Shown: positions 7,032 through 37,406 of the stretch, in pieces
Position numbering within the stretch: the stretch's first letter is position 1
Layout: every line of letters starts with the position of its first letter
NCBI GenBank assembly: GCA_001600495.1
Contig: BCKE01000011.1
Span: 294,950 to 337,237 of the forward strand
Direction of reading: 5' to 3'
Origin: Pilasporangium apinafurcum
Lineage: Eukaryota; Oomycota; Peronosporomycetes; Pythiales; Pythiaceae
DNA length: 42,288 bases
Translations under genes and position numbers: made by a program
The notes under the pieces: generated by a model
The model's database searches: none
What the model saw: only the letters and a program-made list of their open reading frames with translations
What the model was told of the DNA's origin: nothing

Positions 7032-10000
7032 ATGGATACTCGATACGAAACATTCCCATCCACACCAAATGCACTCAACGCCTGTCTTGACGCCAAATCT
7101 ACCAAATCTCGGAACCTACAAGCACTAGATACTGACCACCATCCATCAGATCAAGAACAATGTTTCTTCAGCAGTCAACCAAATCCGTTGGCTACAGTAT
7201 CGCTTCTATCGGTGGTCGTGACACAATGGATTCAGCCGCTGATCGTGCTTGGTGCCAAGAAGATCTTGAACAAAGAAGACATTTGGCCCGTGTGTCCTCA
7301 AGATTCTTGCCAGGCGTTAGAAGCTCGATTCCTGCAGCATTACGATCCGCACGCAGATCCCTCTACGCCATTTGGGTTGTCGCGCGTGGCGACTGCGTTC
7401 GCCAAGACCTTCCGACGTGAGCTTGTCGTGATATTTGCCAACTATTTCGTCTACATCTTGGCCATGGCCGTGCAGTCCTACATTGCACAGTCGATCCTGA
7501 ATTTCCTGAATGACCGCCCAAATGTCTTTCATATCGACAACGGTTATGCCTTAGCGGCGATGTTGACGACTGTGTCGATGATATCGACAACCTGTATGAA
7601 CTATGGGTTCTTTGTCTCTTCTCGATTGGGTGTTAACGTGCGCACACTAGTGATGACTATCGTTTACCAGAAATCGCTTCGGCTTTCCTCAACAGCCCGA
7701 CAGCGGTACACGACAGGCGAGATTGTGACGCTCATGAGTGTCGACGCTGAACGAGTATTTACTTCCATGATGCAGGGACCATGGCTGTTTGTTGCCCCCA
7801 CAGCGTTTATCACCTGTGTCATATTGATCGCGTTGCTCTTTGATGTCCTCACTGCGCTCTGTGGCGCTACGGTGCTGGTAGCTATGGTGATGATTTCTTT
7901 GCGTCAATCAAAGCATATCGGGTCGCTACAGCGTGCTCTTTTGAGTGTGGTGGATGAGCGTGTGAGGGTCACAGCAGAAGCGCTTCAAGGGATCCGAGTA
8001 ATGAAATTTTACGGATGGGAGCAAGCCTTGGCGCAACGCGTCGAAAACCTTCGTGAGAAAGAAATGCAATTGTATCGAAAGTTCCATTACCATCAGATCA
8101 CAAATGCCGCCATGTGGTTCCTCACACCAGTGATTATGTCTGGCACGACACTTGGATTCTACGTGGTTACGAATGGGAATGTGACAGTGACCGATGCATT
8201 TACATTGGTGGCAATCGTGAATATCTGTCGAGCAGCGGCATATGTGCTTCCACATGCCGTGACGACACTTTCGCAGGTGCGGATCGCCTACAGTCGCATT
8301 GATGCATACTTAGCGAGTGAAGAGTTGGACGAGAGTCATTTAATTACTCACAAGCATGTAGAGAATGAAGAACGCGGAAATATTCTCATCCGACATGGAC
8401 GATTCGAGTGGTCAGGCGTGTCATCTTCTTCTTTCGGTACTGTGGATGTCTGTCCAAGCGACCAACTGAACGTAAAAATGGACGAATTTTCCTTAAAAAA
8501 CCAGAACGAGGAAGTTGAAACGATCCACAAGGGATTTGCGCTACATGATATTAATCTTGAGATCGCCTCCGGTTCGCTTGTCATGATCGTCGGCACTGTT
8601 GGATCCGGCAAATCTAGCCTTCTCAATGCACTTCTTGGAGAAATGACTCTGGTGTCTGGCGAAGTAACCATCGATGGAAGCATTGCTTATGTGAGCCAGG
8701 AAGCATGGATCCGAAATTCGAGTGTCAAGGAAAATATCCTCTTTGAAGCGGAATTTGATCGCGATCGATACGAAAAGGTAGTGACTGCATCGCAACTAAA
8801 TGAGGATTTGTGCTCTCTACCCAATGGTGACGAAACGGAAATTGGAGAGCGCGGAATCAATCTCAGTGGAGGCCAAAAGGCACGCGTAGCTATTGCAAGA
8901 GCGGTGTACCGTCCTGACTACAATATCTTGATCATGGACGATCCTCTCAGTGCTGTGGATCCGCATGTAGCCCATGCGATCTTCAATGAGTGTGTACTGG
9001 GACTCGCCAAGAACAAGACACGCTTGCTTGTCTTGAACAGCCACTATGATCTATTGACTCACGCTGACAATATCTTGTTTATCGATCACGGTCAAATTGC
9101 TGGTGAAGGCACATACAAGGAAATTATCACGCAGTTTCCTAAACTCCGAACGGAAATCAAGGCAATGAACAAACTGGAAGAGATAGAGCGTGATCAGCCG
9201 GGACAAATAGTGGATTCCAGTGACAAGGTAAATATCATCACTACAAACGCTGATATTGATCAACAAGCACCAAGTGATGACCAGATTCGGCTGGTGCAAG
9301 ATGAAGACCGTGTGAAGGGCCGAGTGAGTGGCCAAATGTACAAGGCTTATTTTACTGCAACTGGTTATAATTGCGTGTTTATCGCGCTTGCAATCCTCGT
9401 AGCATATACAACCAGTCAGGGCGTCTCCATCCTCGTTGATTGGTGGCAAGGCCATTGGGCAAACAACATGCCCAGAAAGGGAGTTGATCCCAGCTATTCC
9501 GGTACATGGTTTGGTGTCTGGTATGCAAGTTTCATAGTACTCTGCGTGATTCTGACGGTAGGTCGTGGACTATTGGTAATGGGTATATGCTTGGAGACAG
9601 CCAAAAGTTTACACAACGAGCTATTTCGTCGCGTTTTGCAGGCGCGGGTGAACCGATACTTTGACGTGACACCCGTGGGAAGAATATTGAATCGATTTTC
9701 GAGTGATTTGGATCAAATGGATTCCGTGTTACTCATCCAGTATCAGACACTGTTTCAGAATTTTAGTGTCTGTGCAGGAAGTTTGGTGATCTGCACGACG
9801 GCTTCAGTCTGGATCGGTCTGTCCTATATCCCGATGATTCTGGCATTTTTAACTACCGCCTACTATTACAAAAAGACATCGAGAGAAGTCAAGCGACTGG
9901 AGGGCATTACTCGGACACCAATATTTAATCTGTTTGAAGAAACATTAACTGGACTGTCGACGATTCGCGCATTTAAGATGCAAAACGCGTTTGTGCAACG

Positions 10001-11069
10001 AAGCAAGCAAGCAGTGGATGAGAATACCACATTGTATTTCACGTTTTGGTCGGTGGGGCGATGGATTGGTGTCCGATTGGACTATTTGTCGGTAATTATC
10101 ATCGTCGTTGTCTCATTCTATTTGGTGGCGACGAAAGGTCAAATCAGCGCGGTCGTCGCTGGCATTGTGCTCAGTTACTCCCTAATGCTCACATACAACG
10201 TATCCACCACAGTACGAATTGCCGATCGAACCGATAATGCAATGACAAGTGTCGAGCGATTGTTGCATTTCCGGAATATCCCCGTCGAAGACGAAGGTGC
10301 AGATTGTATACCGATTAATACGGAGGCTTGGCCATCACAAGGTGCGATTAAATTTGACGCTCTCCATCTTAAGTACCGTCCAGAGCTTCCACTGGTGCTT
10401 CGTGGTGTGAATATGGAAATCGGTGGTGGTGAGAAAGTAGGGATCTGCGGTCGCACAGGCGCCGGCAAAAGTTCGTTGATGATTGCACTTTTCCGGATCT
10501 GCGAGTTTGAGAGTGGCACAATCTTCATTGACGGTATTGACATCACGAAGGTGAAGCTTCATGACCTTCGACGCAGTCTGGCGATCATCCCTCAAGATCC
10601 AGTGTTGTACAGCGGCTCGCTTCGGGAGAATTTGGATCCATTCGGCTATTACTCGGACAATCTGATTTGGTCAGTCTTGCAGCAGGTTCATTTAGCAGAG
10701 AGTATGGTCACATGGGGTGCTGGTCTAGATTTCATGGTCTCTGAACGCGGTGATAACTTGTCGGTCGGGCAACGACAATTGCTATGTATTGGTCGTGCAT
10801 TGTTGAAGAACAGCAAGATTGTGGTGCTGGACGAAGCCACAGCGAATGTTGACTCTGCGACCGACAGTATGATCCAAGTGACAATCAAAGAGACGTTTGT
10901 AGATAAGACAGTTCTCACCATCGCGCATCGAATCAATACCATCATGCATTGTGACAAGATCGCTGTTATGGATGCTGGTCAAGTTGCAGAGTTTGACTCG
11001 CCAATGAACCTTCTTCGTCGACCGGACTCGATCTTCGCTTCTCTTGCAAGTCGATCGAAGCAGAATTAA
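7032..11069 (+). CDS. ABCC (MRP-type) transporter, array gene 1
   Basis: The 1345-residue full-size ABC exporter is arranged TMD1-NBD1-TMD2-NBD2 without a TMD0. The N-terminal tail has ETFPSTP, followed by the family block QPLIVLGAKKIL. NBD1 has Walker A GTVGSGKSS (521-529), LSGGQ (611-615) and ILIMDD (632-637), with Asp where the catalytic Glu is expected, as is usual in ABCC NBD1. NBD2 has GICGRTGAGKSS (1137-1148), LSVGQ (1243-1247) and IVVLDE (1263-1268) with the catalytic Glu, so ATP hydrolysis should rest mainly on site 2. About 45 residues intervene between FEW and the NBD1 Walker A. It probably exports anionic conjugates or drugs from the cytosol; the substrate is unknown. From residue 1065 to the end the DNA is identical to gene 2. 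The gene converges on gene 2 and has no introns. Confidence 0.92.
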   Translation: MDTRYETFPSTPNALNACLDAKSTKSRNLQALDTDHHPSDQEQCFFSSQPNPLATVSLLSVVVTQWIQPLIVLGAKKILNKEDIWPVCPQDSCQALEARFLQHYDPHADPSTPFGLSRVATAFAKTFRRELVVIFANYFVYILAMAVQSYIAQSILNFLNDRPNVFHIDNGYALAAMLTTVSMISTTCMNYGFFVSSRLGVNVRTLVMTIVYQKSLRLSSTARQRYTTGEIVTLMSVDAERVFTSMMQGPWLFVAPTAFITCVILIALLFDVLTALCGATVLVAMVMISLRQSKHIGSLQRALLSVVDERVRVTAEALQGIRVMKFYGWEQALAQRVENLREKEMQLYRKFHYHQITNAAMWFLTPVIMSGTTLGFYVVTNGNVTVTDAFTLVAIVNICRAAAYVLPHAVTTLSQVRIAYSRIDAYLASEELDESHLITHKHVENEERGNILIRHGRFEWSGVSSSSFGTVDVCPSDQLNVKMDEFSLKNQNEEVETIHKGFALHDINLEIASGSLVMIVGTVGSGKSSLLNALLGEMTLVSGEVTIDGSIAYVSQEAWIRNSSVKENILFEAEFDRDRYEKVVTASQLNEDLCSLPNGDETEIGERGINLSGGQKARVAIARAVYRPDYNILIMDDPLSAVDPHVAHAIFNECVLGLAKNKTRLLVLNSHYDLLTHADNILFIDHGQIAGEGTYKEIITQFPKLRTEIKAMNKLEEIERDQPGQIVDSSDKVNIITTNADIDQQAPSDDQIRLVQDEDRVKGRVSGQMYKAYFTATGYNCVFIALAILVAYTTSQGVSILVDWWQGHWANNMPRKGVDPSYSGTWFGVWYASFIVLCVILTVGRGLLVMGICLETAKSLHNELFRRVLQARVNRYFDVTPVGRILNRFSSDLDQMDSVLLIQYQTLFQNFSVCAGSLVICTTASVWIGLSYIPMILAFLTTAYYYKKTSREVKRLEGITRTPIFNLFEETLTGLSTIRAFKMQNAFVQRSKQAVDENTTLYFTFWSVGRWIGVRLDYLSVIIIVVVSFYLVATKGQISAVVAGIVLSYSLMLTYNVSTTVRIADRTDNAMTSVERLLHFRNIPVEDEGADCIPINTEAWPSQGAIKFDALHLKYRPELPLVLRGVNMEIGGGEKVGICGRTGAGKSSLMIALFRICEFESGTIFIDGIDITKVKLHDLRRSLAIIPQDPVLYSGSLRENLDPFGYYSDNLIWSVLQQVHLAESMVTWGAGLDFMVSERGDNLSVGQRQLLCIGRALLKNSKIVVLDEATANVDSATDSMIQVTIKETFVDKTVLTIAHRINTIMHCDKIAVMDAGQVAEFDSPMNLLRRPDSIFASLASRSKQN
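9922..10051 (+). repeat. Near-identical 130 bp tract shared with gene 2 (13027-13156, inverted)
   Basis: Over 130 bp genes 1 and 2 differ at only two positions (AGC versus AAT, the Ser/Asn in QRSKQ versus QRNKQ). The segments either side are clearly more diverged. It encodes the end of the cytoplasmic helix following TM10 (TGLSTIRAFKMQ region). It looks like a separate, slightly older conversion tract. Confidence 0.7.
10224..11067 (+). repeat. 844 bp NBD2 tract identical to 12011-12854 (inverted)
   Basis: The tract runs from the first base of the Asp codon in DRTDNAM to the first base of the stop codon. I saw no mismatch with the reverse complement of 12011-12854 in the stretches compared, and the overlapping antisense frames are also identical. 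Synonymous sites are included, so selection on the protein cannot explain it. Gene 3 and gene 4 encode nearly the same NBD2 with many synonymous differences. Confidence 0.9.
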
Positions 11070-12008
11070 GCAAACCATGGATTTTTAATGTCAAGTTTCG
11101 GATGTTACGTGTTTTGTCTGTATTCACGTCGACGATAATGAAGAGCTTGCAGTCATCTACGAGCTGCCGTCGCGATCATGTGTGCTCACATGTCTCGAAA
11201 CAAAGGATATACAAAGTACATCGCGATATTTCCATCCATTGCATGAGTATGGCTTTATCTTCTGAACGTTCGGATTAATGTTAATATGCTCGATGAGCTC
11301 GGAGTCGGTGATCATCGAGATGTTGGACATGATGATTAAACAAGATGACCTCAGAGAAACAGCGAAAGTGATGACGTACACGACAAAATTTCCATGCGTA
11401 AGCTGGTACCGCTGAAAAACACTGCATCGTTTGGTCGTTCCAAGAATCAATTATGCATGAGAGCGATTGATGTGATGTCCAAGCTGGTCATAGGTATCTA
11501 AACAACAGTATCAGATCTAGCTAAAAACGGTTACTAGTGGGTTTTTGTGTTAAACTCGTTCATCTTTGATTTGTAATTTCTTTGGGTTTTTATGCTTTGC
11601 GTTTGGTTAGTGGCAAAAACCCATTATGTACTAATCTAAAATCTAAACCCGTTACGGGTCTATGTACTATATATTTTTAGCTCAGGATCAGAAAATGTTA
11701 ATCTGATTCCTATAAACCGGGTTGGGCTGGTTATGCAATGCAAACCCGGAATATTTGGGTTAATCGACCATAGGTTTTTCCCTTTCAAATGTCTTGGTGA
11801 GGTTGGTAACCATCTGGGTTTTTTACTGTAGCAATTAACGTCGCCACAACTGCTGGACTTGCATGCCTGACTTGCACATTCCCAGCAACAGATAGACTGC
11901 TGTTGCTCAACTTCGTGAATGTGCAAATGATGATCGTTTGGCAATGTGGCTGTGCCTGATCGAAGAGCCATGAAGCTAATTGCTTGCTTGTAGCGAAGAT
12001 GTTTGACG
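11070..12008. other. Intergenic region between convergent genes 1 and 2
   Basis: This holds the 3' ends of genes 1 and 2 and forms the spacer of the 844 bp inverted repeat. The part at about 11520-11830 is rich in GGGTTT/AAACCC words and contains a 10 bp inverted repeat (TGGGTTTTTG at 11538-11547, CAAAAACCCA at 11614-11623). A coding relic may lie at 11157-11450. There is no gene here that I can support as functional. Confidence 0.5.
11157..11450 (-). pseudogene. Possible coding relic with a membrane-like segment
   Basis: An open frame of 97 codons has no ATG at its start. It reads coherently (YQLTHGNFVVYVITFAVSL, then SCLIIMSNISMITDSELIEH and KIKPYSCNGWKYRDVL), with a hydrophobic segment followed by polar sequence. 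It may be the tail of a membrane protein. I do not recognise it, and it could be chance. Confidence 0.2.
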
Positions 12009-15000
12009 TCAATTCTGCTTCGATCGACTTGCAAGAGAAGCGAAGATCGAGTCCGGTCGACGAAGAAGGTTCATTGGCGAGTCAAACTCTGCAACTTGAC
12101 CAGCATCCATAACAGCGATCTTGTCACAATGCATGATGGTATTGATTCGATGCGCGATGGTGAGAACTGTCTTATCTACAAACGTCTCTTTGATTGTCAC
12201 TTGGATCATACTGTCGGTCGCAGAGTCAACATTCGCTGTGGCTTCGTCCAGCACCACAATCTTGCTGTTCTTCAACAATGCACGACCAATACATAGCAAT
12301 TGTCGTTGCCCGACCGACAAGTTATCACCGCGTTCAGAGACCATGAAATCTAGACCAGCACCCCATGTGACCATACTCTCTGCTAAATGAACCTGCTGCA
12401 AGACTGACCAAATCAGATTGTCCGAGTAATAGCCGAATGGATCCAAATTCTCCCGAAGCGAGCCGCTGTACAACACTGGATCTTGAGGGATGATCGCCAG
12501 ACTGCGTCGAAGGTCATGAAGCTTCACCTTCGTGATGTCAATACCGTCAATGAAGATTGTGCCACTCTCAAACTCGCAGATCCGGAAAAGTGCAATCATC
12601 AACGAACTTTTGCCGGCGCCTGTGCGACCGCAGATCCCTACTTTCTCACCACCACCGATTTCCATATTCACACCACGAAGCACCAGTGGAAGCTCTGGAC
12701 GGTACTTAAGATGGAGAGCGTCAAATTTAATCGCACCTTGTGATGGCCAAGCCTCCGTATTAATCGGTATACAATCTGCACCTTCGTCTTCGACGGGGAT
12801 ATTCCGGAAATGCAACAATCGCTCGACACTTGTCATTGCATTATCGGTTCGATCAACTGCACGAACAGTGGCTTGCATCATGGACGTGAGCATCAATGAG
12901 TACGAAAGTGATATACCAGCGACGACCGCGCTGATTTGACCTTTTGTAGCGACCAAGTACAGTGCAACCACAAATATAATCATCACTGACAACCAATCCA
13001 AACGAACAGCGAGCCATCGTCCTGCAGACCAAAACGTGAAATACAATGTGGTATTCTCATCCACTGCTTGCTTATTTCGTTGCACAAACGCGTTTTGCAT
13101 CTTAAATGCGCGAATCGTCGACAGTCCAGTTAATGTTTCTTCAAACAGATTAAATACTGGTGTGCGTGAGACGCCTTCGATGCGTTTCAGTTCGCGAGAA
13201 GTTTTCTGGAAATATTTGCCAGTGAACACGAAGATGGCGATCATTGGAATGTACGAGACACCGATCCAGAAAGAAGACGCTGCTGAGACGACCAACGAAC
13301 CAACACACATAGCTACATTTTGGTACATGGCTTGGTATTGTTGGGGCAGCACTGAATCCATTTGGTCCAAGTCGTTCGAGAAACGATTGAGAATGCGGCC
13401 GATGGGTGTCACATCAAAATAGCGATTGATCGGTGCACGCAGCACTCGACGGAAAAGCTTATAATGTAGATTCTTGGAGCTAAGGATGCAGGATTCGATC
13501 ACCAAAAAGCTACGTCCCACTGTGAGCACACAACAAATGATGATAAACCCAAAGTACCACAATCCATAGGTTGTGTTTGAGTATTTCGGATCAACATCTT
13601 CGCGGTCCATGTTGTTCGCCCAATGACCTTGCCACCAATCCACAAGCACACGCACGCTCTGACTTGCGACATATGCCACAAAAATTGCAAGAATCACCAA
13701 GTAACTGTTATACCCGGTCTCATAAAAATACGTCAGATACGTTTGCCCCGTGACTTTGCCTTTGATGCGGTCTTCGTCCATGACCAGTCGCGCGTCATCG
13801 TTATTAGTGTCAAGTGATGAGGTATCTTCAGTCTTTGTAGAATTTGACACGACAGCATTAGCTATTACTGGCTTCTCAAACCCCTCTGTTTTCTCCAACA
13901 TATTGCTCTCATTGCCATCTTCATGCGTGTCAACAGTGACTGGAGAGTGCAAGTCCGGAAATTGTTCTATGATCTCCTTATATGTGCCATCCGCGACGAT
14001 ACTTCCACCCTGTATGACCAGAACCTTGTCGGCATGAACCAACAGATCGTAATGACTGTTCAACACCAACAAACGAGTTTTGCCGCGAGCCAAACCCGTG
14101 ATACATTGGTCGAAGATGGCATGCGCCACGTGCGGGTCTACAGCACTGAGTGGGTCGTCTAAGATGAGAATATTGTAGTTTGCGCGATACATCGCTCTTG
14201 CGATAGCAACTCGCGCTTTTTGGCCACCACTCAAGTTGATTCCACGCTCACCTATCTCAGTTTGGTCGCCATTAGGGAGCGCACGCAAGTCCGTGGCGAG
14301 TTGCGTGGCTGTCAACACTTGCTCATATCGTTGTGCGTCAAAAGGAGATTCAAACAGAATGTTGTCCTTAACACTGGAATTTCGGATCCAGGATTCTTGG
14401 CTCACATAGGATACCTCACCTTGGATGGCGACCGAACCAGCTGTCAAATTCATCTCACCAAGCAATGCATGGAGCAGGCTGGATTTGCCCGATCCGACCA
14501 CACCGACGATCATAACCAACGAGCCGGGATCGATTTCTATGTTGATATTGCTCAGGGTGAAGCCGTGAGGAGCCGATGCATCCAACTGTTTCTCGTGGTC
14601 AGATAAGAAAATATCGTCAGCCTTGGTCGGACTGGATGTGTCGACAATTACGAAATCTTTAGCCGAGGATGGCGTTGCCCATTCGAAACAGGCGGTTTCG
14701 ACGACAATACTTCCGGGTGGATGTATCTCACCTGTAGTGGCCATCATACTAGTGTGGGGACTTTCCCCGTTGGGCTCATTCACTGGCAGTTCATCGCTGG
14801 CCAAGTATCGATCGATCCGCGCATACGCAATCTTGGCCTGCGACAGCGCTGCAATCGCGACAGGCATGACATTGACTGACGCGCGACAGATATTAACGAT
14901 AGCCACGAGAGTATAAGCATCTGTGACAGTGATGCTGCCGTTCACAAGCACGTAGACAACAAGCGTGACGCCTGAGATGAACACTGGTGTCAAGAACAGC

Positions 15001-16076
15001 ATGACCGTGTTCATGATCTGGCAAAAATGGAACTTGCGAAACAGTTTCACTTCAACAGCGCGAATCCGCTCGACGCGATGCGCGAGTGATTCTTCCCAGG
15101 CATAGAACTTCATCACGCGGATACCTTGTAACGCTTCAGAGGTTACTTTCACACGTTCGTCGATGACACGGAGCAGCTCATGCTGCAATTTACCGATCTG
15201 ATTTCCTTGTTGGATGGAAATTAGACACACCAGCACCATCACGATGGCCCCCGAGAGCGCGGCGACGATATCGAAGAGTAGCGCGATGAGAATGACCGTG
15301 ACAATGAATCCCATCAAAGCACAGAAAATCCAGGGCCCGTTCAGCATGGCGCTAAAGGCACGATCTGCGTCGACGCTCATGAGCGTCATAATCTCCCCTG
15401 TGGTGTATTCTTGTCGCGCCATGGATGAGAGCTTTAGGGACTTTTGGTAGACAATATCCATCACCAGCGTGCGCATATTGACTCCTACTCTGGATGAGAG
15501 ATAGAAACCATAGTTTAAACAAGTCACCGCGGTTAAAGAAACACAAGACATCAGAATAACTAGTACATAGCCGTTGTCGATGTGGAAGCTGTTGACGCGG
15601 TCGTTTAGAAAATCGAGAATCGCCTGTGCGAGATAGGCTTGTAATGCCAGCGCGAGGACGTAGATGAAATGGTTGATAAAGAGCACGGACATTTCTCTAC
15701 GAAACGTCTTCATGAACGCGATGACGACGGGTGATAACCCAAATATTGTCTTTTGATGTTTACTGGGGCAATAGACCTTGCGGAAGCGTTCTTCCAGTGC
15801 ATCACAGGTGTCTTCGTGGCAGAGTGGCCACACGTCTTCTTTATTGAGAATCTTCTTGGCACCCAACGCGATAAGCGGTTGCAGCCACTGTATTACAATG
15901 ATGGAAAACAGCGACGCGGATGCTAAGGGACTTTCTTGTTGGCTAAATGGGACGGTGGTTGGCTGTTGATGCTTGAATGAGACATCACATTGACCCACAG
16001 TCTTGGGTGTGGGTTGCACCTCAGTGTAGGGACTGTCCTCGCTTACCCGTTCCGGTGCCATTGCGTAACTCTGCAT
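12009..16076 (-). CDS. ABCC (MRP-type) transporter, array gene 2
   Basis: The 1355-residue full-size exporter has the same layout as gene 1. The N-terminus contains YTEVQPTPK. NBD1 has Walker A GVVGSGKSS (525-533), LSGGQ (about 615-619) and ILILDDPLSAVD, again with Asp at the catalytic position. NBD2 starts with GICGRTGAGKSS near 1147 and is the same 844 bp as gene 1. The start at 16076 is the first ATG after the initiator-like site; a second in-frame ATG at 16061 would remove five residues. TMD2 is closer to gene 1 than to other members around TGLSTIRAFKMQ, but TM11-TM12 (LDWLSVMIIFVVALYL) differ. The gene shares a 1.7 kb divergent promoter region with gene 3. Confidence 0.92.
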   Translation of the reverse strand: MQSYAMAPERVSEDSPYTEVQPTPKTVGQCDVSFKHQQPTTVPFSQQESPLASASLFSIIVIQWLQPLIALGAKKILNKEDVWPLCHEDTCDALEERFRKVYCPSKHQKTIFGLSPVVIAFMKTFRREMSVLFINHFIYVLALALQAYLAQAILDFLNDRVNSFHIDNGYVLVILMSCVSLTAVTCLNYGFYLSSRVGVNMRTLVMDIVYQKSLKLSSMARQEYTTGEIMTLMSVDADRAFSAMLNGPWIFCALMGFIVTVILIALLFDIVAALSGAIVMVLVCLISIQQGNQIGKLQHELLRVIDERVKVTSEALQGIRVMKFYAWEESLAHRVERIRAVEVKLFRKFHFCQIMNTVMLFLTPVFISGVTLVVYVLVNGSITVTDAYTLVAIVNICRASVNVMPVAIAALSQAKIAYARIDRYLASDELPVNEPNGESPHTSMMATTGEIHPPGSIVVETACFEWATPSSAKDFVIVDTSSPTKADDIFLSDHEKQLDASAPHGFTLSNINIEIDPGSLVMIVGVVGSGKSSLLHALLGEMNLTAGSVAIQGEVSYVSQESWIRNSSVKDNILFESPFDAQRYEQVLTATQLATDLRALPNGDQTEIGERGINLSGGQKARVAIARAMYRANYNILILDDPLSAVDPHVAHAIFDQCITGLARGKTRLLVLNSHYDLLVHADKVLVIQGGSIVADGTYKEIIEQFPDLHSPVTVDTHEDGNESNMLEKTEGFEKPVIANAVVSNSTKTEDTSSLDTNNDDARLVMDEDRIKGKVTGQTYLTYFYETGYNSYLVILAIFVAYVASQSVRVLVDWWQGHWANNMDREDVDPKYSNTTYGLWYFGFIIICCVLTVGRSFLVIESCILSSKNLHYKLFRRVLRAPINRYFDVTPIGRILNRFSNDLDQMDSVLPQQYQAMYQNVAMCVGSLVVSAASSFWIGVSYIPMIAIFVFTGKYFQKTSRELKRIEGVSRTPVFNLFEETLTGLSTIRAFKMQNAFVQRNKQAVDENTTLYFTFWSAGRWLAVRLDWLSVMIIFVVALYLVATKGQISAVVAGISLSYSLMLTSMMQATVRAVDRTDNAMTSVERLLHFRNIPVEDEGADCIPINTEAWPSQGAIKFDALHLKYRPELPLVLRGVNMEIGGGEKVGICGRTGAGKSSLMIALFRICEFESGTIFIDGIDITKVKLHDLRRSLAIIPQDPVLYSGSLRENLDPFGYYSDNLIWSVLQQVHLAESMVTWGAGLDFMVSERGDNLSVGQRQLLCIGRALLKNSKIVVLDEATANVDSATDSMIQVTIKETFVDKTVLTIAHRINTIMHCDKIAVMDAGQVAEFDSPMNLLRRPDSIFASLASRSKQN
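12011..12854 (-). repeat. 844 bp NBD2 tract identical to 10224-11067 (inverted)
   Basis: Partner of the gene 1 tract. The arms are tail to tail with a 943 bp spacer. Sequence diverges at once on both sides: GTT versus GCC before the Asp codon, and TGA versus TAA in the stop codon. Confidence 0.9.
13027..13156 (-). repeat. 130 bp near-identical tract shared with gene 1 (9922-10051)
   Basis: Partner of the short tract in gene 1, with two substitutions in 130 bp. A diverged block (12855-13026) that encodes TM11 and TM12 separates it from the 844 bp tract. Confidence 0.7.
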
Positions 16077-17653: not shown

Positions 17654-17663
17654 GATGAGTGCA
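17654..17663 (+). promoter_or_regulatory. GATGAGTGCA box upstream of gene 3
   Basis: An exact copy of the decamer, 161 bp before the ATG of gene 3. An inverted copy, TGCACTCATC, lies at 17561-17570. Confidence 0.45.
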
Positions 17664-17781
17664 CGGTGAGACATGGCACAGCCGTTCTTTTTTGTGTGTC
17701 TGCACTTTCTTTCCCTCTCAAAGTTTATATGGAGCCATCACTATACTGGCAGGAGCACTGACTACAGGAATTCGTTCGTGC

Positions 17782-17797
17782 TCATTTTCTAACTTGC
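17782..17797 (+). promoter_or_regulatory. Initiator (Inr/FPR-like) of ABCC gene 3; decides the start codon
   Basis: TCATTTTCTAACTTGC lies 33 bp before the ATG at 17815. The frame is open back to 17659, but an mRNA starting here would exclude that part. The protein beginning MDRVEDHYEALPATP matches the N-termini of the paralogues. Confidence 0.55.
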
Positions 17798-17814
17798 TGT
17801 CAGACACACAACAA

Positions 17815-20800
17815 ATGGATCGGGTGGAAGATCATTACGAGGCGCTGCCTGCCACACCCAGGTTAGTGAACCATAGCGATGAAAATCAGCCGCCGAAGCA
17901 AGATAAAAAGCAGCAAATACCATTCAGTCAGCAGACGAATCCACTCTCGAGTGCGTCATTAGTGTCAGTGCTAGTGACACATTGGATGCAGCCGCTCATC
18001 TCACTCGGTGCCAAGAAGATCCTCGACCGAGAAGACATTTGGCCTGTGTGTCATGAAGACTCATGTGACGTTTTAGAAGCGCGATTCGCGCAGAAATACG
18101 ACCCAACTAAACCCACTCCATTTGGGCTTTCGCCCGTCGCTGTGGCCCTTCTGAAAACGTTCCGCCGCGAATGGACAGTCGTGTTTGGTAATTATTTTGT
18201 CTACATCATCATGTTGTCGCTGCAAAGTTATTGTGCACAGGCGATTCTCGCATTCCTGAGCGGCCAAGATAATGTATTCCATATCCACAATGAGTATGTG
18301 CTAGCGCTATTGCTCACAGGGGTCTCCTTCACGGCAACGACATGCATGAACTATGGTTATTTCCTCTCGTCAAGGATTGGTACTAATGCTCGGACGCTAA
18401 TCATGGATATGGTCTACCAGAAATCGCTACGTTTGTCTTCCGTGGCGCGGCAAGAGTACACTACTGGCGAGATTGTGACGCTCATGAGTGTCGATGCTGA
18501 ACGCGTTTTCACAGCCATGCTCAATGGCGCATGGCTGATCGTCGCACCATGTGCATTCCTCGCTTGCATCATTCTAATCGGATTGCTGTTGGATTTCATT
18601 ACGGCGTTATGTGGTGCTGTGGTATTGATCATCTTGATATCCATTTCCTTCCAGCAAGCCGATCAAATTGGCTCAACACAACGTGAATTACTAGGTGTTG
18701 TTGATGAACGCGTGAAAGTTACCTCTGAGGCGCTGCAGGGCATTCGTGTGATGAAGTTTTACGCCTGGGAAGAATCCTTGGCTCGAAGAGTCGAGAAGCT
18801 GCGTGATGTGGAGATCAACCTGTTTCGGAAATTTCAATACTATCAGACTATGAACACCGTTATGCTGTTCCTCGCTCCAGTGTTTCTGGCAGGGGCGACT
18901 TTTGAGCTCTATGTAATTAAAGGCGGCATGATTTCGGTCATAAATGCGTTCACTCTAATTGCAATCGTTAACATCTGCCGTGCAGCTGTGTATGTGCTTC
19001 CGCAATCGGTTGCAGCGATTTCTCAGGCAAAAATCGCGTACGGACGGATAGACGCGTACTTGGCCGCGGATGAATTTCAGCCAATGATACTACCGTCGGC
19101 GATGACACAAGTTACTCAGAAGAATGCTGAGGCTGGTTCTATTGCCATTGAACACGCAGAATTTCGCTGGCCAGAGGCAGCGAATGCCGGAGATGTTGTG
19201 GTTGTGAGCTCAGAAAAAGCAAATACCATCGACCTATCTCAATGTTCATCCAGTGGACATCGCGCATCGAAAATAACACAATCAGGATTCGCGTTGCATG
19301 ACGTGAATCTTGAGGTTGCTCCAGGATCACTAGTGATGATTGTTGGTACTGTTGGATCAGGGAAATCCAGTCTGCTCAACGCTTTGCTTGGCGAGATGAC
19401 ATTACTTTCAGGCAAAGTTGACATGCATGGTACTATCGCTTATGCGAGTCAGGAAGCATGGATCCGCAACTCAAGTGTCAAGGATAACATCCTATTTGAA
19501 TCTCCCTTTGATGCCAATCGGTATCACCAAGTCCTTGAAGCGTCTCAGTTGGGTGAAGATTTGCGTGCACTCCCTAATGGTGATCAAACGGAGATCGGTG
19601 AGCGTGGCATCAACCTGAGCGGTGGTCAAAAAGCACGGGTGGCTATCGCTAGGGCAATGTATCGACCAGATTACGATGTTTTGATCCTGGATGACCCGCT
19701 GAGTGCTGTAGATCCACATGTTGCGCACGCCATCTTTGACGAATGTGTGCTTGGACTCGCTGGCAACAAAACTCGGTTGCTTGTGCTGAATAGCCACTAC
19801 GACTTGTTGAAGCATGCGGACAAGATTTTAGTCCTTGAACACGGGCAAATTGCAGGGGATGGCACATACGAAGCAATGATGAACCACTTCCCGGATTTGC
19901 TGGCCCAGGTGGTTGTGATGGATAAAGAGGAGCAGGAGATTGTAGATGAACACAAGCGCATCGACAGATCGGTGGAAACTGCCACGGAAAAAAGTATTTC
20001 GAAGAAACGAGAGAAGGCTACGGAACAGAAAACGAATGAAGACGACAATCGGTTAATCAAAGACGAAGATCGAGTAAAGGGACGCGTCAGCGGTGAGACC
20101 TACAAGGTCTACTTTGAGATGACTGGATTCAGCAGTACTCTGGTCGGAATCGTAATCTTTGTAGCATATTCGACAAGTCAAGCCGTGCGCACGCTTGTTG
20201 ATTGGTGGCAGGGCTACTGGGCGAGAAGTATGTCTCATGACGATCCATCGTATTCAGAAGGGCTCTATGCATGGCGGTATTTTGGCTTCATTGTAGTTTG
20301 TACTATCCTCACGTTCGGACGCGGCCTGTTGATCATGGAAGCCTGCATTCGTAGCTCTAAGAATTTGCACGATGAACTCTTCTGCCGCGTGTTGCGCGCA
20401 CCGATCAATCGTTACTTTGATATTACACCTGTTGGTCGCATATTGAATCGATTCTCGAATGATCTCGATCAAGTGGATTCTATCTTACCGCAACAATATC
20501 AGGTTCTTTTCCAAAACTTTGGCGTGTGTGTTGGTAGCTTGATCGTTTGTACGCTCGCTTCGTACTGGATTGGAATCACGTACATCCCAATGGCGGGTAT
20601 GTTCTTTGTGACGGCCCAATATTTCAAAAAGACATCACGAGAAATCAAGCGCTTGGAAGGAATCACACGAACTCCGATTTTCAGTCTTTTTGAAGAAACA
20701 TTGTCTGGATTGCAGACCATTCGTGCCTATAAGATGCAAGACACGTTTGTGAAACGCAACAAAGAGGTCATAGACGATAACACCGGCGTATACTTTGCGT

Positions 20801-21825
20801 ACTACTCTGCAGCTCGATGGCTTGGTGTGCGATTGGACTATTTGTCAGTACTTATCATTTTCGTTGTCTCGCTCTATTTGGTGTCAACTAAAGGGCAAAT
20901 TGGTGCCATTGTGGCGGGTATTACGTTGACATACTCGCTTGTGCTCACAACCAATTTGCACGCCACCATGCGTGGTGTTGATCGAACTGACAACGCTATG
21001 ACGAGCGTGGAACGTTTGCTGCATTTTAGGAACATTCCAATTGAAGAAGATAGCCCAAACTGTGTACCCATTAACAGTGAAGTCTGGCCCTCCCAAGGAG
21101 TGATTCAGTTCGACAATCTCCATCTTAAATATCGTCCAGAACTCCCACTTGTGCTTCGTGGTGTCAATATGGAGATTGGTGGCGGCGAGAAAGTGGGGAT
21201 CTGTGGTCGCACAGGTGCTGGCAAAAGTTCGTTGATGATTGCATTGTTTCGGATTTGTGAATTCGATAGCGGCACAATTTTCATTGACGGAATTAACATC
21301 ACAAATGTGAAACTGCGTGATCTTCGTCGTAGCTTGGCAATTATCCCTCAAGATCCAGTATTATACAGTGGCTCACTGCGTGAAAATTTGGATCCGTTTG
21401 GTGATTATTCGGATGATGTGATCTGGTCGGTCTTACAGCAAGTGCATTTGGCAGAGAGCGTGAAGAAGTGGGGAGCTGGCTTGGACTTTGTGGTGTCCGA
21501 ACGCGGTGACAACTTGTCAGTCGGTCAGCGTCAATTGCTGTGTATTGGTCGCGCACTACTGAAAGACAGTAAGATCGTTGTTCTGGATGAGGCAACCGCA
21601 AATGTTGATACTGCCACTGACAATCTTATCCAAGTAACGATCAAAGAGACATTTGTGAGCAAGACCGTGTTGATCATCGCTCATCGCATCAACACGATTA
21701 TGCATTGTGATAAGATTGCTGTTATGGATGCTGGACAAGTCGCCGAGTTTGGGGCACCCGTGGATCTGTTGAACCAGCAGGATTCGATTTTTGCGTCACT
21801 AGCGAAGAAGACGACGCATAATTAA
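17815..21825 (+). CDS. ABCC (MRP-type) transporter, array gene 3
   Basis: The 1336-residue full-size exporter begins MDRVEDHYEALPATP. A 52-codon in-frame extension to 17659 is rejected because the initiator-like site lies inside it and the paralogues align from 17815. NBD1 has Walker A GTVGSGKSS from residue 511, LSGGQ and VLILDDPLSAVD (Asp at the catalytic place). NBD2 has GICGRTGAGKSS near 1128, LSVGQ and IVVLDE. The linker between NBD1 and TMD2 is highly charged (EKSISKKREK, then DEDRVKGRVSG). The last NBD2 part is identical in DNA to gene 5, although gene 4 lies between them. It is on the same strand as gene 4, 952 bp upstream of it, probably with its own promoter. Confidence 0.92.
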   Translation: MDRVEDHYEALPATPRLVNHSDENQPPKQDKKQQIPFSQQTNPLSSASLVSVLVTHWMQPLISLGAKKILDREDIWPVCHEDSCDVLEARFAQKYDPTKPTPFGLSPVAVALLKTFRREWTVVFGNYFVYIIMLSLQSYCAQAILAFLSGQDNVFHIHNEYVLALLLTGVSFTATTCMNYGYFLSSRIGTNARTLIMDMVYQKSLRLSSVARQEYTTGEIVTLMSVDAERVFTAMLNGAWLIVAPCAFLACIILIGLLLDFITALCGAVVLIILISISFQQADQIGSTQRELLGVVDERVKVTSEALQGIRVMKFYAWEESLARRVEKLRDVEINLFRKFQYYQTMNTVMLFLAPVFLAGATFELYVIKGGMISVINAFTLIAIVNICRAAVYVLPQSVAAISQAKIAYGRIDAYLAADEFQPMILPSAMTQVTQKNAEAGSIAIEHAEFRWPEAANAGDVVVVSSEKANTIDLSQCSSSGHRASKITQSGFALHDVNLEVAPGSLVMIVGTVGSGKSSLLNALLGEMTLLSGKVDMHGTIAYASQEAWIRNSSVKDNILFESPFDANRYHQVLEASQLGEDLRALPNGDQTEIGERGINLSGGQKARVAIARAMYRPDYDVLILDDPLSAVDPHVAHAIFDECVLGLAGNKTRLLVLNSHYDLLKHADKILVLEHGQIAGDGTYEAMMNHFPDLLAQVVVMDKEEQEIVDEHKRIDRSVETATEKSISKKREKATEQKTNEDDNRLIKDEDRVKGRVSGETYKVYFEMTGFSSTLVGIVIFVAYSTSQAVRTLVDWWQGYWARSMSHDDPSYSEGLYAWRYFGFIVVCTILTFGRGLLIMEACIRSSKNLHDELFCRVLRAPINRYFDITPVGRILNRFSNDLDQVDSILPQQYQVLFQNFGVCVGSLIVCTLASYWIGITYIPMAGMFFVTAQYFKKTSREIKRLEGITRTPIFSLFEETLSGLQTIRAYKMQDTFVKRNKEVIDDNTGVYFAYYSAARWLGVRLDYLSVLIIFVVSLYLVSTKGQIGAIVAGITLTYSLVLTTNLHATMRGVDRTDNAMTSVERLLHFRNIPIEEDSPNCVPINSEVWPSQGVIQFDNLHLKYRPELPLVLRGVNMEIGGGEKVGICGRTGAGKSSLMIALFRICEFDSGTIFIDGINITNVKLRDLRRSLAIIPQDPVLYSGSLRENLDPFGDYSDDVIWSVLQQVHLAESVKKWGAGLDFVVSERGDNLSVGQRQLLCIGRALLKDSKIVVLDEATANVDTATDNLIQVTIKETFVSKTVLIIAHRINTIMHCDKIAVMDAGQVAEFGAPVDLLNQQDSIFASLAKKTTHN
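20978..21797 (+). repeat. 820 bp NBD2 tract identical to 27751-28570 (inverted)
   Basis: I found no mismatch with the reverse complement of 27751-28570 in the stretches compared. The tract starts one codon position before the Asp of DRTDNAM and ends in the alanine/serine codons of FASLA, so the final residues (KKTTHN) stay specific to gene 3. Other array members differ here at many synonymous sites. Confidence 0.9.
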
Positions 21826-22777: not shown

Positions 22778-25700
22778 ATGACGGTGCAAGACGAGAGTCA
22801 TGATGGACATTACGTAGCTGTGCCACCGACACCGACCACACAGTCTCAGTTAGACCACCATCGTATCTCCATTCCATTAGTAAAGAAGAACGCAATTGAT
22901 CCCAAACAATCCTCAACAACGACTGAGCAACAGATATCATTCAGCCAGCAGGAAAATCCATTGTCTACCGCGTCCTTGCTATCAGTGGTAGTAACCCATT
23001 GGCTCCAGCCTCTGATCACACTCGGTGCCAAGAAAATCCTCGAAAAAGAAGACATTTGGCCAATCTGCCAAGTAGATTCTTGTGACGCTTTGACTGCACG
23101 GTTTCGAAGTGTTTACAATCCCAAAAGTCAGACACCGTTGGGTATGTCACCCGTGGCGTGGGCGTTCCTGAAGATGTTTCGTCGCGATCTCGTGGTGGTG
23201 TTCGCCAACTACGTCATCTACATCATGATGATGGCCATGCAATCCATCCTCGCACAAGCGATTCTCGATTTCCTCAATGACCGCGTCAATCGGTTTCATA
23301 TCAACAGTGGCTATGTACTGGTGGTGATGCTCACGTGTGCATCGATGACAGCGATCACGACACTCAACTACGGCTTTTTCCTGTCCTCTCGCTTGGGCGC
23401 CAACATGCGGACAGTCATTATGGATGTTGTCTACCAGAAATCGCTGCGCTTGTCATCTGCCGCGCGTCACGAGTACACAACTGGTGAAGTCATGACTCTG
23501 ATGAGTGTCGACGCAGAACGGGTGTTTAATGCCATGATGCAAGGTCCGTGGCTGTTTTGTGCGCCATTTGGATTCCTTATTGCATTGGCACTGATTGTCG
23601 TCATTTTTGACTGGATTTCGGCGCTCATTGGCGCGGCTGTCATCGTCATCGTGCTGACGATTTCCGTCCATCAAGCAAAATGGATTGGTATCACGCAACG
23701 GGGTCTACTGGATGTCGTGGACGAACGTGTGAAAGTAACGTCAGAAGCTCTGCAGGGCATACGTGTGATGAAATTTTACGCCTGGGAAGAGTCGCTCGCA
23801 CGTCGTGTTGAACGCATTCGTGGGTTGGAAGTCCAACTATTTCGAAAATTTCACTTCTACCAGATCACCAATTCAGTCATGCTCTTCCTCACACCAGTTT
23901 TCATCTCTGGTACGACGTTGGGGTGTTATGTGCTTATTAACGGGACGATCTCTGTCACAAACGCATTCACATTGATTGCGGTTGTCAACATTTGCCGTTC
24001 AGCCGTGAACGTCTTGCCACTGGCGATTGCTGCGCTTTCACAGGCGAAGATCGCCTATGCACGAATTGATCGATATCTGTGCAGTGGTGAGTTAGAACGC
24101 GTTGAATCTGCGGTGACTCATGTAAAAGATTCAATTGAGAAGTTTCACGAACTTCCGAGGGGCAACATTTCTATTGAAAACGCGCACTTTGAATGGTCTG
24201 TTCCACCGACGGCAAGCACAACGGATGTGGTGATCGTGACCAACGGGAGCCCGATGGTTGATAATAAAGGCGCCCATAATGATGAAGAACCTGAGGCTAC
24301 ACCATCTCAAGGGTTTTCACTGGAGGGAGTGAACATGGAAATCGACGCGGGATCGCTCGTTATGATTGTTGGTGTCGTCGGATCAGGAAAGTCGAGTCTG
24401 CTCAATGCGTTACTGGGTGAAATGAATCTTAAAACGGGATCCATGACTGTCAACGGCGAAGTATCATACGTGAGTCAGGAATCCTGGATCCGGAATTCGA
24501 GTGTCAAGGACAATATTTTATTCGAGTCTCCATACGACCCTGATTTGTATGAAAAAGTGCTGGAGGCAGCGCAACTGGCAACAGATTTGAATGCGCTGCC
24601 AAACGGAGATCAGACGGAGATTGGTGAGCGTGGCATTAACTTGAGCGGAGGTCAGAAAGCTCGTGTATCGATTGCGAGAGCGATGTACCGATCAAACTAC
24701 GACATTCTGATCCTGGATGATCCGTTGAGTGCTGTAGACCCCCACGTCGCGCATGCCATTTTCGACCAATGCATTGTGGGGTTAGCGAAGGACAAGACCC
24801 GCTTGCTGGTTCTGAATAGTCATTACGATCTGCTGAGTCGAGCAGACAAGATTTTTGTCATTGAGCATGGACGGATTACTGGGGATGGCACATACGAGGA
24901 GATTTTGGCGCAGTTCCCCGATTTATACACCAAGACCGAGGTTCTTGACGACATTGAAAACGACGTGATTGATGAGCACGATCAAGAGGAAATAGAAGCA
25001 TTAAAAATGCACGCAGCTGCTGAGGCTTTGGTGGTTACTGGTGATGACCACTCGAAAGCAAACCATCCATTGGCCGCTGATGAGGATAACAGGTTGATCA
25101 AAGACGAAGACCGCGTAAAGGGCGAAGTTTCGGGTCAAACGTACATGACATACTTCAACGAAACCGGCTACAATGGCGTTCTCGTAATTATCGTGATCAT
25201 AATCGCCTACGCGTCCAGCCAAGGAATGCGAACACTTGTCGATTGGTGGCAAGGACACTGGGCGAGTCGAATGTTGAGTGTTTCGTATAACGGTACGGCG
25301 TTTGGCATGTGGTATCTCGCTTTCATTATACTGTGTACAGTATTGACAGTCGGTCGCAGTCTCTTAGTGATCGAAGCGTGTATTCGCAGTGCCAGCAACT
25401 TGCACGATGAACTCTTCAGACGCGTATTGAAAGCCCCAATCAATCGGTACTTTGACGTTACTCCCATGGGTCGAATCTTGAATCGGTTCTCAAACGATTT
25501 AGACCAAATGGATTCTATTCTACCGCCACAATACCAGCTCATGTTTCAGAACATGGCTCTTTGTGTGGGCTGCTTGATTGTCTCGGCGTCTTCGTCCATT
25601 TGGATCGGAGTGTCATATATACCGATGATTGTAATCTTTGTGCTGACGGGTCAGTACTTTAAAAAAACCTCTCGAGAGGTGAAGCGCTTAGAAGGGATCA

Positions 25701-31754: not shown

Positions 31755-31798
31755 GCCACAGTAACAATGACAACAAAGCGAGGTTGTGGAAGTCACAA

Positions 31799-37136: not shown

Positions 37137-37406
37137 CTAAACCTTTACAGGCTGTTCCGCTAGAGATCCAAAGTTCGTGTCGGGTAACCTTAAGAGAGCC
37201 ACTGGCAAGCCAAACTCGGTGACCTGCCCAGCATCCATGACAGCGATCTTATCACAGTGCATGATAGTGTTGATACGATGTGCGATGATCAGCACAGTTT
37301 TACTCACAAACGTCTCTTTGATGGTTTTCTGGATCAAAGTATCTGTTGCGGTATCGACATTGGCAGTGGCTTCGTCAAGTACAACAATCTTGCTATCTTT
37401 TAGCAG
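37137..37406 (-). pseudogene. ABCC C-terminal fragment (relic of an eighth array member)
   Basis: About 90 codons match the last part of NBD2, from [18 protein letters not shown] through the H-loop IAHRINT to a stop. Upstream of 37406 the homology ends abruptly, and the frame runs on for some 30 unrelated residues to an ATG. Walker A, signature and both TMDs are absent, so it cannot be a transporter. No frameshift or stop has entered it. It is closest in DNA to gene 4 (both share GTGCTGATCATCGCACATCG), but its tail ([18 protein letters not shown]) is unique, so it is the end of a lost gene or a partial duplication. Confidence 0.8.

What the first reader, a model, noticed from the sequence alone, without database searches (positions are those of the whole stretch)
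10224..12854. 844 bp identical inverted NBD2 tract between convergent ABCC genes 1 and 2
The whole NBD2-coding end of both genes is the same DNA, including synonymous positions, with sharp borders: the Asp codon of DRTDNAM and the first base of the stop codon. NBD2 of genes 3, 4 and 6 encodes nearly the same protein with many synonymous changes. This points to very recent gene conversion between the arms of an inverted pair. A misassembly that copied one arm is the alternative.
Basis: seen in the sequence. Interest (0 to 1): 0.75.

Follow-up and report, generated by a model that had tools for sequence, protein, structure and literature searches.

The report
Repeated NBD swapping among ABC transporters
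In an oomycete genome, neighbouring and otherwise very different ABC transporter genes share stretches of identical DNA covering exactly one ATP-binding domain, which points to repeated copying of that domain from gene to gene while the substrate-handling parts stay different.

Summary
Confirmed and extended. Window 10224-11067 and 12011-12854 are an exact 844-bp inverted repeat forming the NBD2-coding ends of two convergent, intact ABCC genes whose upstream parts are 62% identical. Four-fold sites differ at 0 of 126 and 0 of 120 inside the tracts, but are saturated in the 26 other pairs of eight readable genes. Similar tracts cover NBD1 in two other clusters: C26, 802 bp exact, direct; C56, 780 bp, inverted. 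A further gene (g10, contig C119) is an older mosaic: 86% identical to gene 4 upstream, but its NBD2 groups with genes 3/5, switching 16-30 bp from the same border. Best explanation: recurrent ectopic gene conversion of NBD modules. Inverted orientation is not required. Wholesale misassembly is unlikely (g10 and a 130-bp patch do not look like collapse). But this assembly writes one consensus into several near-identical places (shared single Ns), so zero divergence is not read-verified. The process is known (Candida krusei ABC11-ABC1); domain-sized, border-sharing conversion in two ABC subfamilies is a variant for which I found no report.

The parts
7032..11069 (+). gene 1, ABCC full transporter, 1345 aa, intact
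   Evidence: ORF; two ABC_membrane and two ABC_tran stretches; best PDB matches ABCC2/ABCC4
12009..16076 (-). gene 2, ABC full transporter of the same family, 1355 aa, intact, convergent with gene 1
10224..11067 (+). identical tract A, arm in gene 1: linker plus NBD2 to the T of the stop codon (Walker A, LSVGQ signature, Walker B present)
12011..12854 (-). identical tract A, arm in gene 2
11068..12010 (.). 943-bp spacer between the arms (3' ends of two convergent genes)
   Evidence: first 60 nt after each arm 27% identical
9922..10051 (+). second, 130-bp patch (2 mismatches) in TMD2 of gene 1
   Evidence: flanks 0.615 and 0.663
13027..13156 (-). partner of the 130-bp patch in gene 2
17659..21825 (+). 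gene 3, ABC transporter of the same family (first ATG reading from 17815, 1336 aa)
27723..31796 (-). gene 5, ABC transporter of the same family (ATG reading from 31754, 1343 aa)
20978..21797 (+). identical tract B, arm in gene 3 (820 bp, NBD2)
27751..28570 (-). identical tract B, arm in gene 5
22778..26860 (+). gene 4, same family, 1360 aa; upstream sister of g10 on contig C119 but with a different NBD2
32180..36172 (-). gene 6, same family, 1330 aa, no recent tract seen

Best explanation
Recurrent ectopic (interlocus) gene conversion that replaces one whole nucleotide-binding-domain module of an ABC transporter gene with the copy from a paralogue. Shown, in this assembly: two NBD2 replacements without any later difference in this ABCC cluster (genes 1/2 and 3/5), one older NBD2 replacement in g10 or gene 4, and NBD1 tracts in two other clusters. 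Inferred: a break in or near an NBD-coding segment is repaired from a paralogue. DNA synthesis runs until homology fails, on the 5' side at the divergent end of the last TMD2 helix (local identity 0.54, stepping to 0.78 at DRTDNAM) and on the 3' side at or near the end of coding homology, which gives sharp and nearly coinciding borders. Also inferred: chimaeras with an exchanged NBD stay functional, so the motor domain is shared while the substrate-binding TMDs keep diverging. For the 3/5 tract the direction was probably gene 5 to gene 3. For genes 1/2 it is unresolved.
For: Exact 844 and 820 bp tracts. Four-fold sites: 0/126 and 0/120 differ inside, while the 26 other pairs of eight readable C11 genes are at 0.26-0.42 identity in the same region. 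Runs of 404 and 386 shared polymorphic sites against a permutation maximum of 21. Upstream protein tree joins g1+g3 (99/99) and g4+g5 (97/95), against the NBD2 pairs. AU test: upstream g1+g2 p=0.041, g3+g5 p=0.013; NBD2 g1+g3 p=1e-8, g4+g5 p=0.030, g10+g4 p=0.032. g10: nt identity to g4 0.857 upstream (459/3207 differ) but 0.734 in NBD2, where g3/g5 give 0.831. Switch 16-30 bp upstream of the same border, with a g5-like, not g3-like, stretch there. Further tracts: C26 802 bp exact, direct, NBD1 (877 bp if its two Ns are passed over); C56 780 bp inverted NBD1; C56 NBD2 mosaics at 82-100%. Identity step at the 5' border.
Against: SH tests do not reject the alternative upstream groupings g1+g2 and g3+g5 (p 0.27, 0.16), nor NBD2 g4+g5 and g10+g4 (p 0.16, 0.23), and those AU rejections are modest. 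First- and second-position nucleotide trees support g4+g5 only weakly (55.5/42). The homology-barrier idea is imperfect: the same scan shows troughs of 0.59 some 60-90 nt inside the tract and 0.53-0.55 near its 3' end, through which the 1/2 tract runs. Conversion between sequences now about 75% identical should be rare, and 780-877 bp is long compared with the 50 to several hundred bp estimated for most ectopic data sets (passages of PMC3924818). In C11 the events are either without differences or old; apart from the 130-bp patch nothing at 90-99% was seen, an odd age spectrum. The assembly shares consensus between near-identical places, so recency may be overstated. No second isolate or sister species could be examined.
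Confidence: 0.8

Rival explanations
1. Assembly artefact: an assembler collapsed the two NBD2 segments into one contig and wrote it into both places, so one arm's true sequence is lost or the arms are only similar.
For: All five isolated-N places met in the fetched stretches (C26, C27/C106, C56, C41, C11:285905) lie in duplicated or repeated DNA; how often a random place does was not measured. Ns are shared at the same offset by both copies of the C41 duplicate and of C27/C106, so one consensus was placed twice. The C26 tract carries two Ns in one copy only.
Against: Paralogues at 75% identity should not collapse (general knowledge of assemblers). The window has no N, although Ns, taken here as ambiguous sites, are written elsewhere. 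Among the 14 and 13 places listed by the genome searches no unassigned full NBD2 appears that could be the lost arm; unassembled pieces would not be seen. The 130-bp patch is bounded by divergent sequence and differs at 2 sites. g10 is an 83% mosaic with nearly the same border.
Confidence: 0.12
2. Long-term trap: the arms of each pair were never allowed to diverge; conversion within the pair has been continuous, and the border was inherited when an inverted pair duplicated (g1-g2 to g3-g5).
For: Same border to within 2 bp in both pairs. Zero differences in both. Each pair joins one g1/g3-clade member with one g2/g4/g5/g6-clade member (that second clade 92/89). Conversion rate falls steeply at about 80% identity (PMC3924818 passage), which would make identity self-maintaining.
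Against: The NBD2 of g3=g5 groups with g10 of the g4/g5 side, which fits a transfer into g3 better than long joint evolution. g10/g4 shows nearly the same border in genes that are not a homogenised pair.
Confidence: 0.2
3. cDNA-mediated replacement: a 3'-biased reverse transcript of one gene recombined with the other.
For: In C11 the tracts lie at the 3' end of the genes and stop at or before the end of the coding sequence.
Against: The NBD1 tracts in C26 and C56 are internal. The genes are single open frames, so loss of introns cannot be tested. The 3' border is equally explained by lack of homology in the UTRs.
Confidence: 0.04

Closest known systems
Candida krusei (Pichia kudriavzevii) ABC11-ABC1 tandem PDR transporters
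   Same: Neighbouring ABC transporter paralogues homogenised by recurrent gene conversion (passage in PMC6053246, citing Lamping et al. 2017, which is not held)
   Different: There the pair is 98% identical in DNA sequence; here identity is confined to one NBD module and the rest of both window pairs is 62% identical, in an oomycete, in ABCC and ABCB genes, in inverted and direct pairs
Palindrome-arm gene conversion (human Y palindromes and similar inverted repeats)
   Same: Inverted arms kept identical by conversion (passages of PMC3403216)
   Different: Here arms are under 1 kb, coding only, cut at a domain border, and the process is not limited to inverted pairs; the Y palindromes are far larger (size recalled, apart from a 23-kb rabbit example in the passages)
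Mitotic recombination in Phytophthora
   Same: Oomycetes show frequent mitotic recombination (PMC6414701 passages; P. sojae mitotic gene conversion seen only as a cited title)
   Different: That is between alleles; here between paralogues
Other ABC families examined for conversion
   Same: A yeast PDR tandem array is suggested to have evolved with gene conversion (PMC2763886 passage)
   Different: In bird ABCG2 paralogues GENECONV found no clear evidence of it (PMC7362505 passage)

Membership tests
Ectopic gene conversion between paralogues | a bounded tract far more similar than the flanks, beyond chance | tested here: met
Ectopic gene conversion between paralogues | synonymous sites equally homogenised | tested here: met
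   0/126 and 0/120 four-fold sites differ; 26 other pairs 0.26-0.42 identity
Ectopic gene conversion between paralogues | tree of the tract conflicts with tree of the rest | tested here: met
   AU significant throughout; SH significant only for NBD2 g1+g3 and upstream g10+g3+g5
Ectopic gene conversion between paralogues | donor and recipient identified by an unconverted relative | tested here: inconclusive
   searches suggest g5 to g3; g1/g2 unresolved; no sister species available
Ectopic gene conversion between paralogues | read-level proof that both loci carry the tract | not testable with these tools
Inverted-repeat (palindrome) arm conversion | restricted to or dependent on inverted arms | tested here: not met
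   direct pair in C26 and direct mosaics in C56; g10 on another contig
C. krusei ABC11-ABC1 type pair | near-identity over the whole gene | tested here: not met
   upstream identity 0.62 for g1-g2 and g3-g5
ABCC (MRP) full transporter | two TMD-NBD units, best solved relatives ABCC | tested here: met
   gene 1; gene 2: Pfam only; the other genes only by similarity to these
Collapsed-repeat assembly artefact | same consensus placed twice, orphan remainder or Ns in the tract | tested here: inconclusive
   seen elsewhere in the assembly; no N in the window, no orphan among the listed places

The most novel reading that the evidence does not exclude
ABC transporter clusters in this oomycete evolve by module exchange: NBD cassettes of about 0.8 kb, cut at nearly one fixed point at the end of the last transmembrane helix before the NBD, circulate among paralogues of a cluster by gene conversion and are re-homogenised again and again, so that the motor is shared while the substrate-specific TMDs diversify independently. 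It happens in both the ABCC and the ABCB subfamily, at NBD1 and at NBD2.
Probability: 0.4. Interest if true: 0.65.

Novelty: new variant of a known kind. Interest (0 to 1): 0.5.

Why it matters
If true, one gene family shows nearly the same domain border used repeatedly for conversion, at different ages and in two ABC subfamilies. That allows a direct test of whether the border is set by a recombination barrier (an identity trough) or by selection for working NBD-TMD combinations. It also warns that trees of ABC transporters built on whole proteins or on NBDs can mix different histories, and that transporter paralogues in oomycetes can exchange motor domains.

Tried and rejected
Rejected: purifying selection or low mutation as the cause of identity. 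The 26 other pairs of eight readable C11 genes are saturated at four-fold sites in the same segment.

Rejected: recent duplication of genes 1/2 or 3/5. Upstream parts are 62% identical and group otherwise.

Rejected: g10 as a second haplotype. It is 86% identical to g4 upstream, with a different NBD2.

Led nowhere: naming the species. Fifty elicitin matches say oomycete; no fungal Zn-cluster match says little, since nothing rang in the controls. Size and contig count (36.47 Mb, 136) differ from the Pythium oligandrum and P. periplocum assemblies read about, but the held copy may be filtered. NBD2 trees did not resolve the donor for genes 1/2. Control: a pair of non-ABC paralogues in C56 (183980-185605 / 187078-188724) is 69% identical over 1574 bp with no exact match of 45 bp or more listed.

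Papers. Whole text in one part: PMC5477391, PMC5364223. Part 1 of 3: PMC7003069. Passages only: PMC2763886, PMC7362505, PMC3681718, PMC6053246, PMC11881565, PMC6414701, PMC3403216, PMC3924818; PMC8544900 and PMC8211738 gave only an entry in the reference list. Not held: Lamping 2017 and Chamnanpunt 2001, seen only as citations. No report of NBD-limited conversion in oomycete ABC clusters was seen in the listings of ten searches, three of which were aimed at assemblies, not at conversion.
Full report
What was checked. The window (G000:C11:294950-337237) has no N and is 46.7% GC. It holds six complete long reading frames for ABC transporters and part of a seventh. Genes 1 and 2 each have two ABC_membrane and two ABC_tran stretches. 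Gene 1's best solved relatives are ABCC2 and ABCC4; the other genes are placed in ABCC by similarity to it. The genome is an oomycete's by its elicitins (50 matches, 0 of 14 controls). The species was not determined.

The longest exact inverted match is 844 bp, 10224-11067 against 12011-12854, between the 3' ends of convergent genes 1 and 2. The 5' border is the Asp codon of DRTDNAM, 11 residues after the Pfam end of TMD2 (TMD match to residue 1054, tract from residue 1065). The 3' border is the T shared by TAA and TGA; the next 60 nt are 27% identical. The tract encodes the linker and complete NBD2 with Walker A, the LSVGQ signature and Walker B.

It is not alone in the window. Genes 3 and 5 share an exact 820-bp inverted tract, 20978-21797 / 27751-28570, which starts 2 bases before the same Asp codon and ends 28 bases before the end of the genes. 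DNA searches of the whole genome list each tract at 100% in two places. Genes 1 and 2 also share a 130-bp patch with 2 mismatches in TMD2, flanked by 61.5% and 66.3% identity.

Strength. Eight C11 genes were readable (g1-g6, g8, g9); at least two more lie in stretches that are withheld. The 26 unconverted pairs of these eight have four-fold-site identity of 0.26-0.42 in NBD2, that is, saturation. The two converted pairs have 0 of 126 and 0 of 120 differences. Zero differences in 1664 bp puts the 95% upper bound near 0.18% per site, if the assembly is right. In a Sawyer-type runs test the longest shared runs are 404 and 386 polymorphic sites; no permutation of 500 exceeded 21 for any pair. One further pair, g2-g5, has a marginal run of 18 sites (1 of 500). 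The upstream protein tree unites g1+g3 (99/99) and g4+g5 (97/95); the first- and second-position tree keeps g1+g3 (99/99) but hardly g4+g5 (55.5/42). Forcing g1+g2 or g3+g5 upstream is disfavoured by the AU test (p 0.041, 0.013) but not by SH (0.27, 0.16).

The process is wider than this pair. In the fetched ABC stretches together (clusters C11, C26, C56, plus single genes on C10, C41, C44) the four longest exact matches are 844, 820, 802 and 780 bp. The 802-bp match is a direct pair in C26, covers NBD1, and is 877 bp long if two single Ns in one copy are passed over. The 780-bp match is an inverted NBD1 pair in C56; the one C56 gene tested is ABCB type. In C56 the NBD2 segments of four frames, one of them truncated, form mosaics at 82-100% identity, so conversion of different ages is visible there. 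A non-ABC paralogue pair in C56 is 69% identical, without such tracts. Outside ABC genes one more sharp case was met by accident: on C41 two inverted copies about 96 kb apart are identical for at least 2049 bp beside a clearly less similar stretch.

The strongest independent evidence is g10, an intact 1360-aa frame on contig C119. Upstream of NBD2 it is 85.7% identical to gene 4 (459 of 3207 nt differ; 299 of 434 four-fold sites identical), but in NBD2 only 73.4%. There it is 83.1% identical to genes 3/5, with 53 of 104 four-fold sites identical against 46 of 150 for g10-g5 in the TMD2 part (Fisher p = 0.0016); support for g10+g3+g5 in NBD2 is 98/97, 94/90 and 95/95 in three trees. The best switch point lies 16-30 bp upstream of the DRTDNAM border, and the short stretch between is g5-like, not g3-like. 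So after g4 and g10 parted, one of them had its NBD2 replaced at practically the same border; which one is not resolved, since the g10-g5 NBD2 similarity is, if anything, older than the g4-g10 split (Fisher p = 0.026). Because the g3=g5 NBD2 groups with g10 of the g4/g5 side, gene 5 was probably the donor and gene 3 the recipient. An 83% identical mosaic is not what collapse of repeats by an assembler produces (inference).

Why the borders coincide. Averaged over unconverted C11 pairs, identity drops to 0.54 in the 30-nt window at the end of the last TMD2 helix (8th percentile of the gene) and jumps to 0.78 at DRTDNAM (87th percentile); NBD2 as a whole is 0.74, TMD2 0.66. A conversion tract that runs until homology fails could stop there. 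Against this, windows of 0.59 lie 60-90 nt inside the tract, and windows of 0.53-0.55 near its 3' end; the 3/5 tract ends about there, but the 1/2 tract runs through them. Selection against chimaeras cut inside the TMD would give the same 5' border. These two are not separated here.

The misassembly rival. Single Ns in this assembly seem to mark unresolved repeats: all five isolated-N places met in the fetched stretches are duplicated or repeated; the background rate was not measured. In two of these (C41, C27/C106) both copies carry the same N at the same offset, so one consensus was written twice. Exact identity in this assembly therefore means 'not distinguished by the assembler'. Against a wholesale artefact in the window: no N there; no unassigned full NBD2 among the 14 and 13 places listed; paralogues at 75% should not collapse; and the 130-bp patch and g10 exist. 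My estimate is 0.12 that the genes 1/2 identity is mainly artefact.

How it most likely works. Shown, in this assembly: bounded, domain-sized replacement between paralogues, more than once, with a nearly shared border. Inferred: repair of a break by copying from a paralogue, with length set by homology, and tolerance of NBD exchange because NBDs are interchangeable motors. A long-term trap, in which identity keeps conversion frequent and so maintains itself, is a serious alternative (0.2) that other species would decide. Rates fall steeply with divergence, and most ectopic tract estimates are 50 to several hundred bp (passages of PMC3924818), so 780-877 bp tracts between genes now about 75% identical in that domain are unusual.

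Known context. Recurrent conversion between ABC transporter paralogues is known from Candida krusei ABC11-ABC1, 98% identical (passage in PMC6053246; the primary paper is not held) and suggested for a yeast PDR array (PMC2763886 passage); in bird ABCG2 paralogues it was looked for without clear evidence (PMC7362505 passage). Palindrome-arm conversion is known (PMC3403216 passages), and mitotic recombination is extensive in Phytophthora ramorum (PMC6414701 passages). I saw no paper on NBD-limited conversion in oomycete ABC clusters in the ten searches made (three of them aimed at assemblies). I therefore file it as a variant of a known process.

Noticed in passing
window 37192-37406 (minus strand): A 215-bp NBD2 relic stands alone in the A+T-richer spacer (42% GC) between genes 6 and 7; 184 bp of it are 84% identical to the matching part of gene 4's NBD2.
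   Followed up: partly
C41:313256-315305 and its inverted copy near C41:216.7 kb (L047, L048): At least 2049 bp identical between two inverted copies about 96 kb apart, next to a less similar stretch; one single N shared by both copies, another in one copy only. A protein-kinase-domain gene lies beside it.
   Followed up: partly
C106:38074-41268 and C27:424056-427571 (L035, L037): 96.5% identical over 3 kb, running beyond the ABC frame, with four single Ns at the same offsets in both: near-identical copies sharing one consensus, either a haplotype copy or a duplication.
   Followed up: partly
C56:181090-182235: A 381-aa ABC frame much shorter than its neighbours, parts of whose NBD2 are 99% identical to two intact genes; a truncated copy may take part in conversion.
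   Followed up: no
C11:344078-344157 and 345805-354725: The ABC array continues beyond the window: the tail of another gene, then g8 and g9, so the cluster probably has at least ten members.
   Followed up: partly
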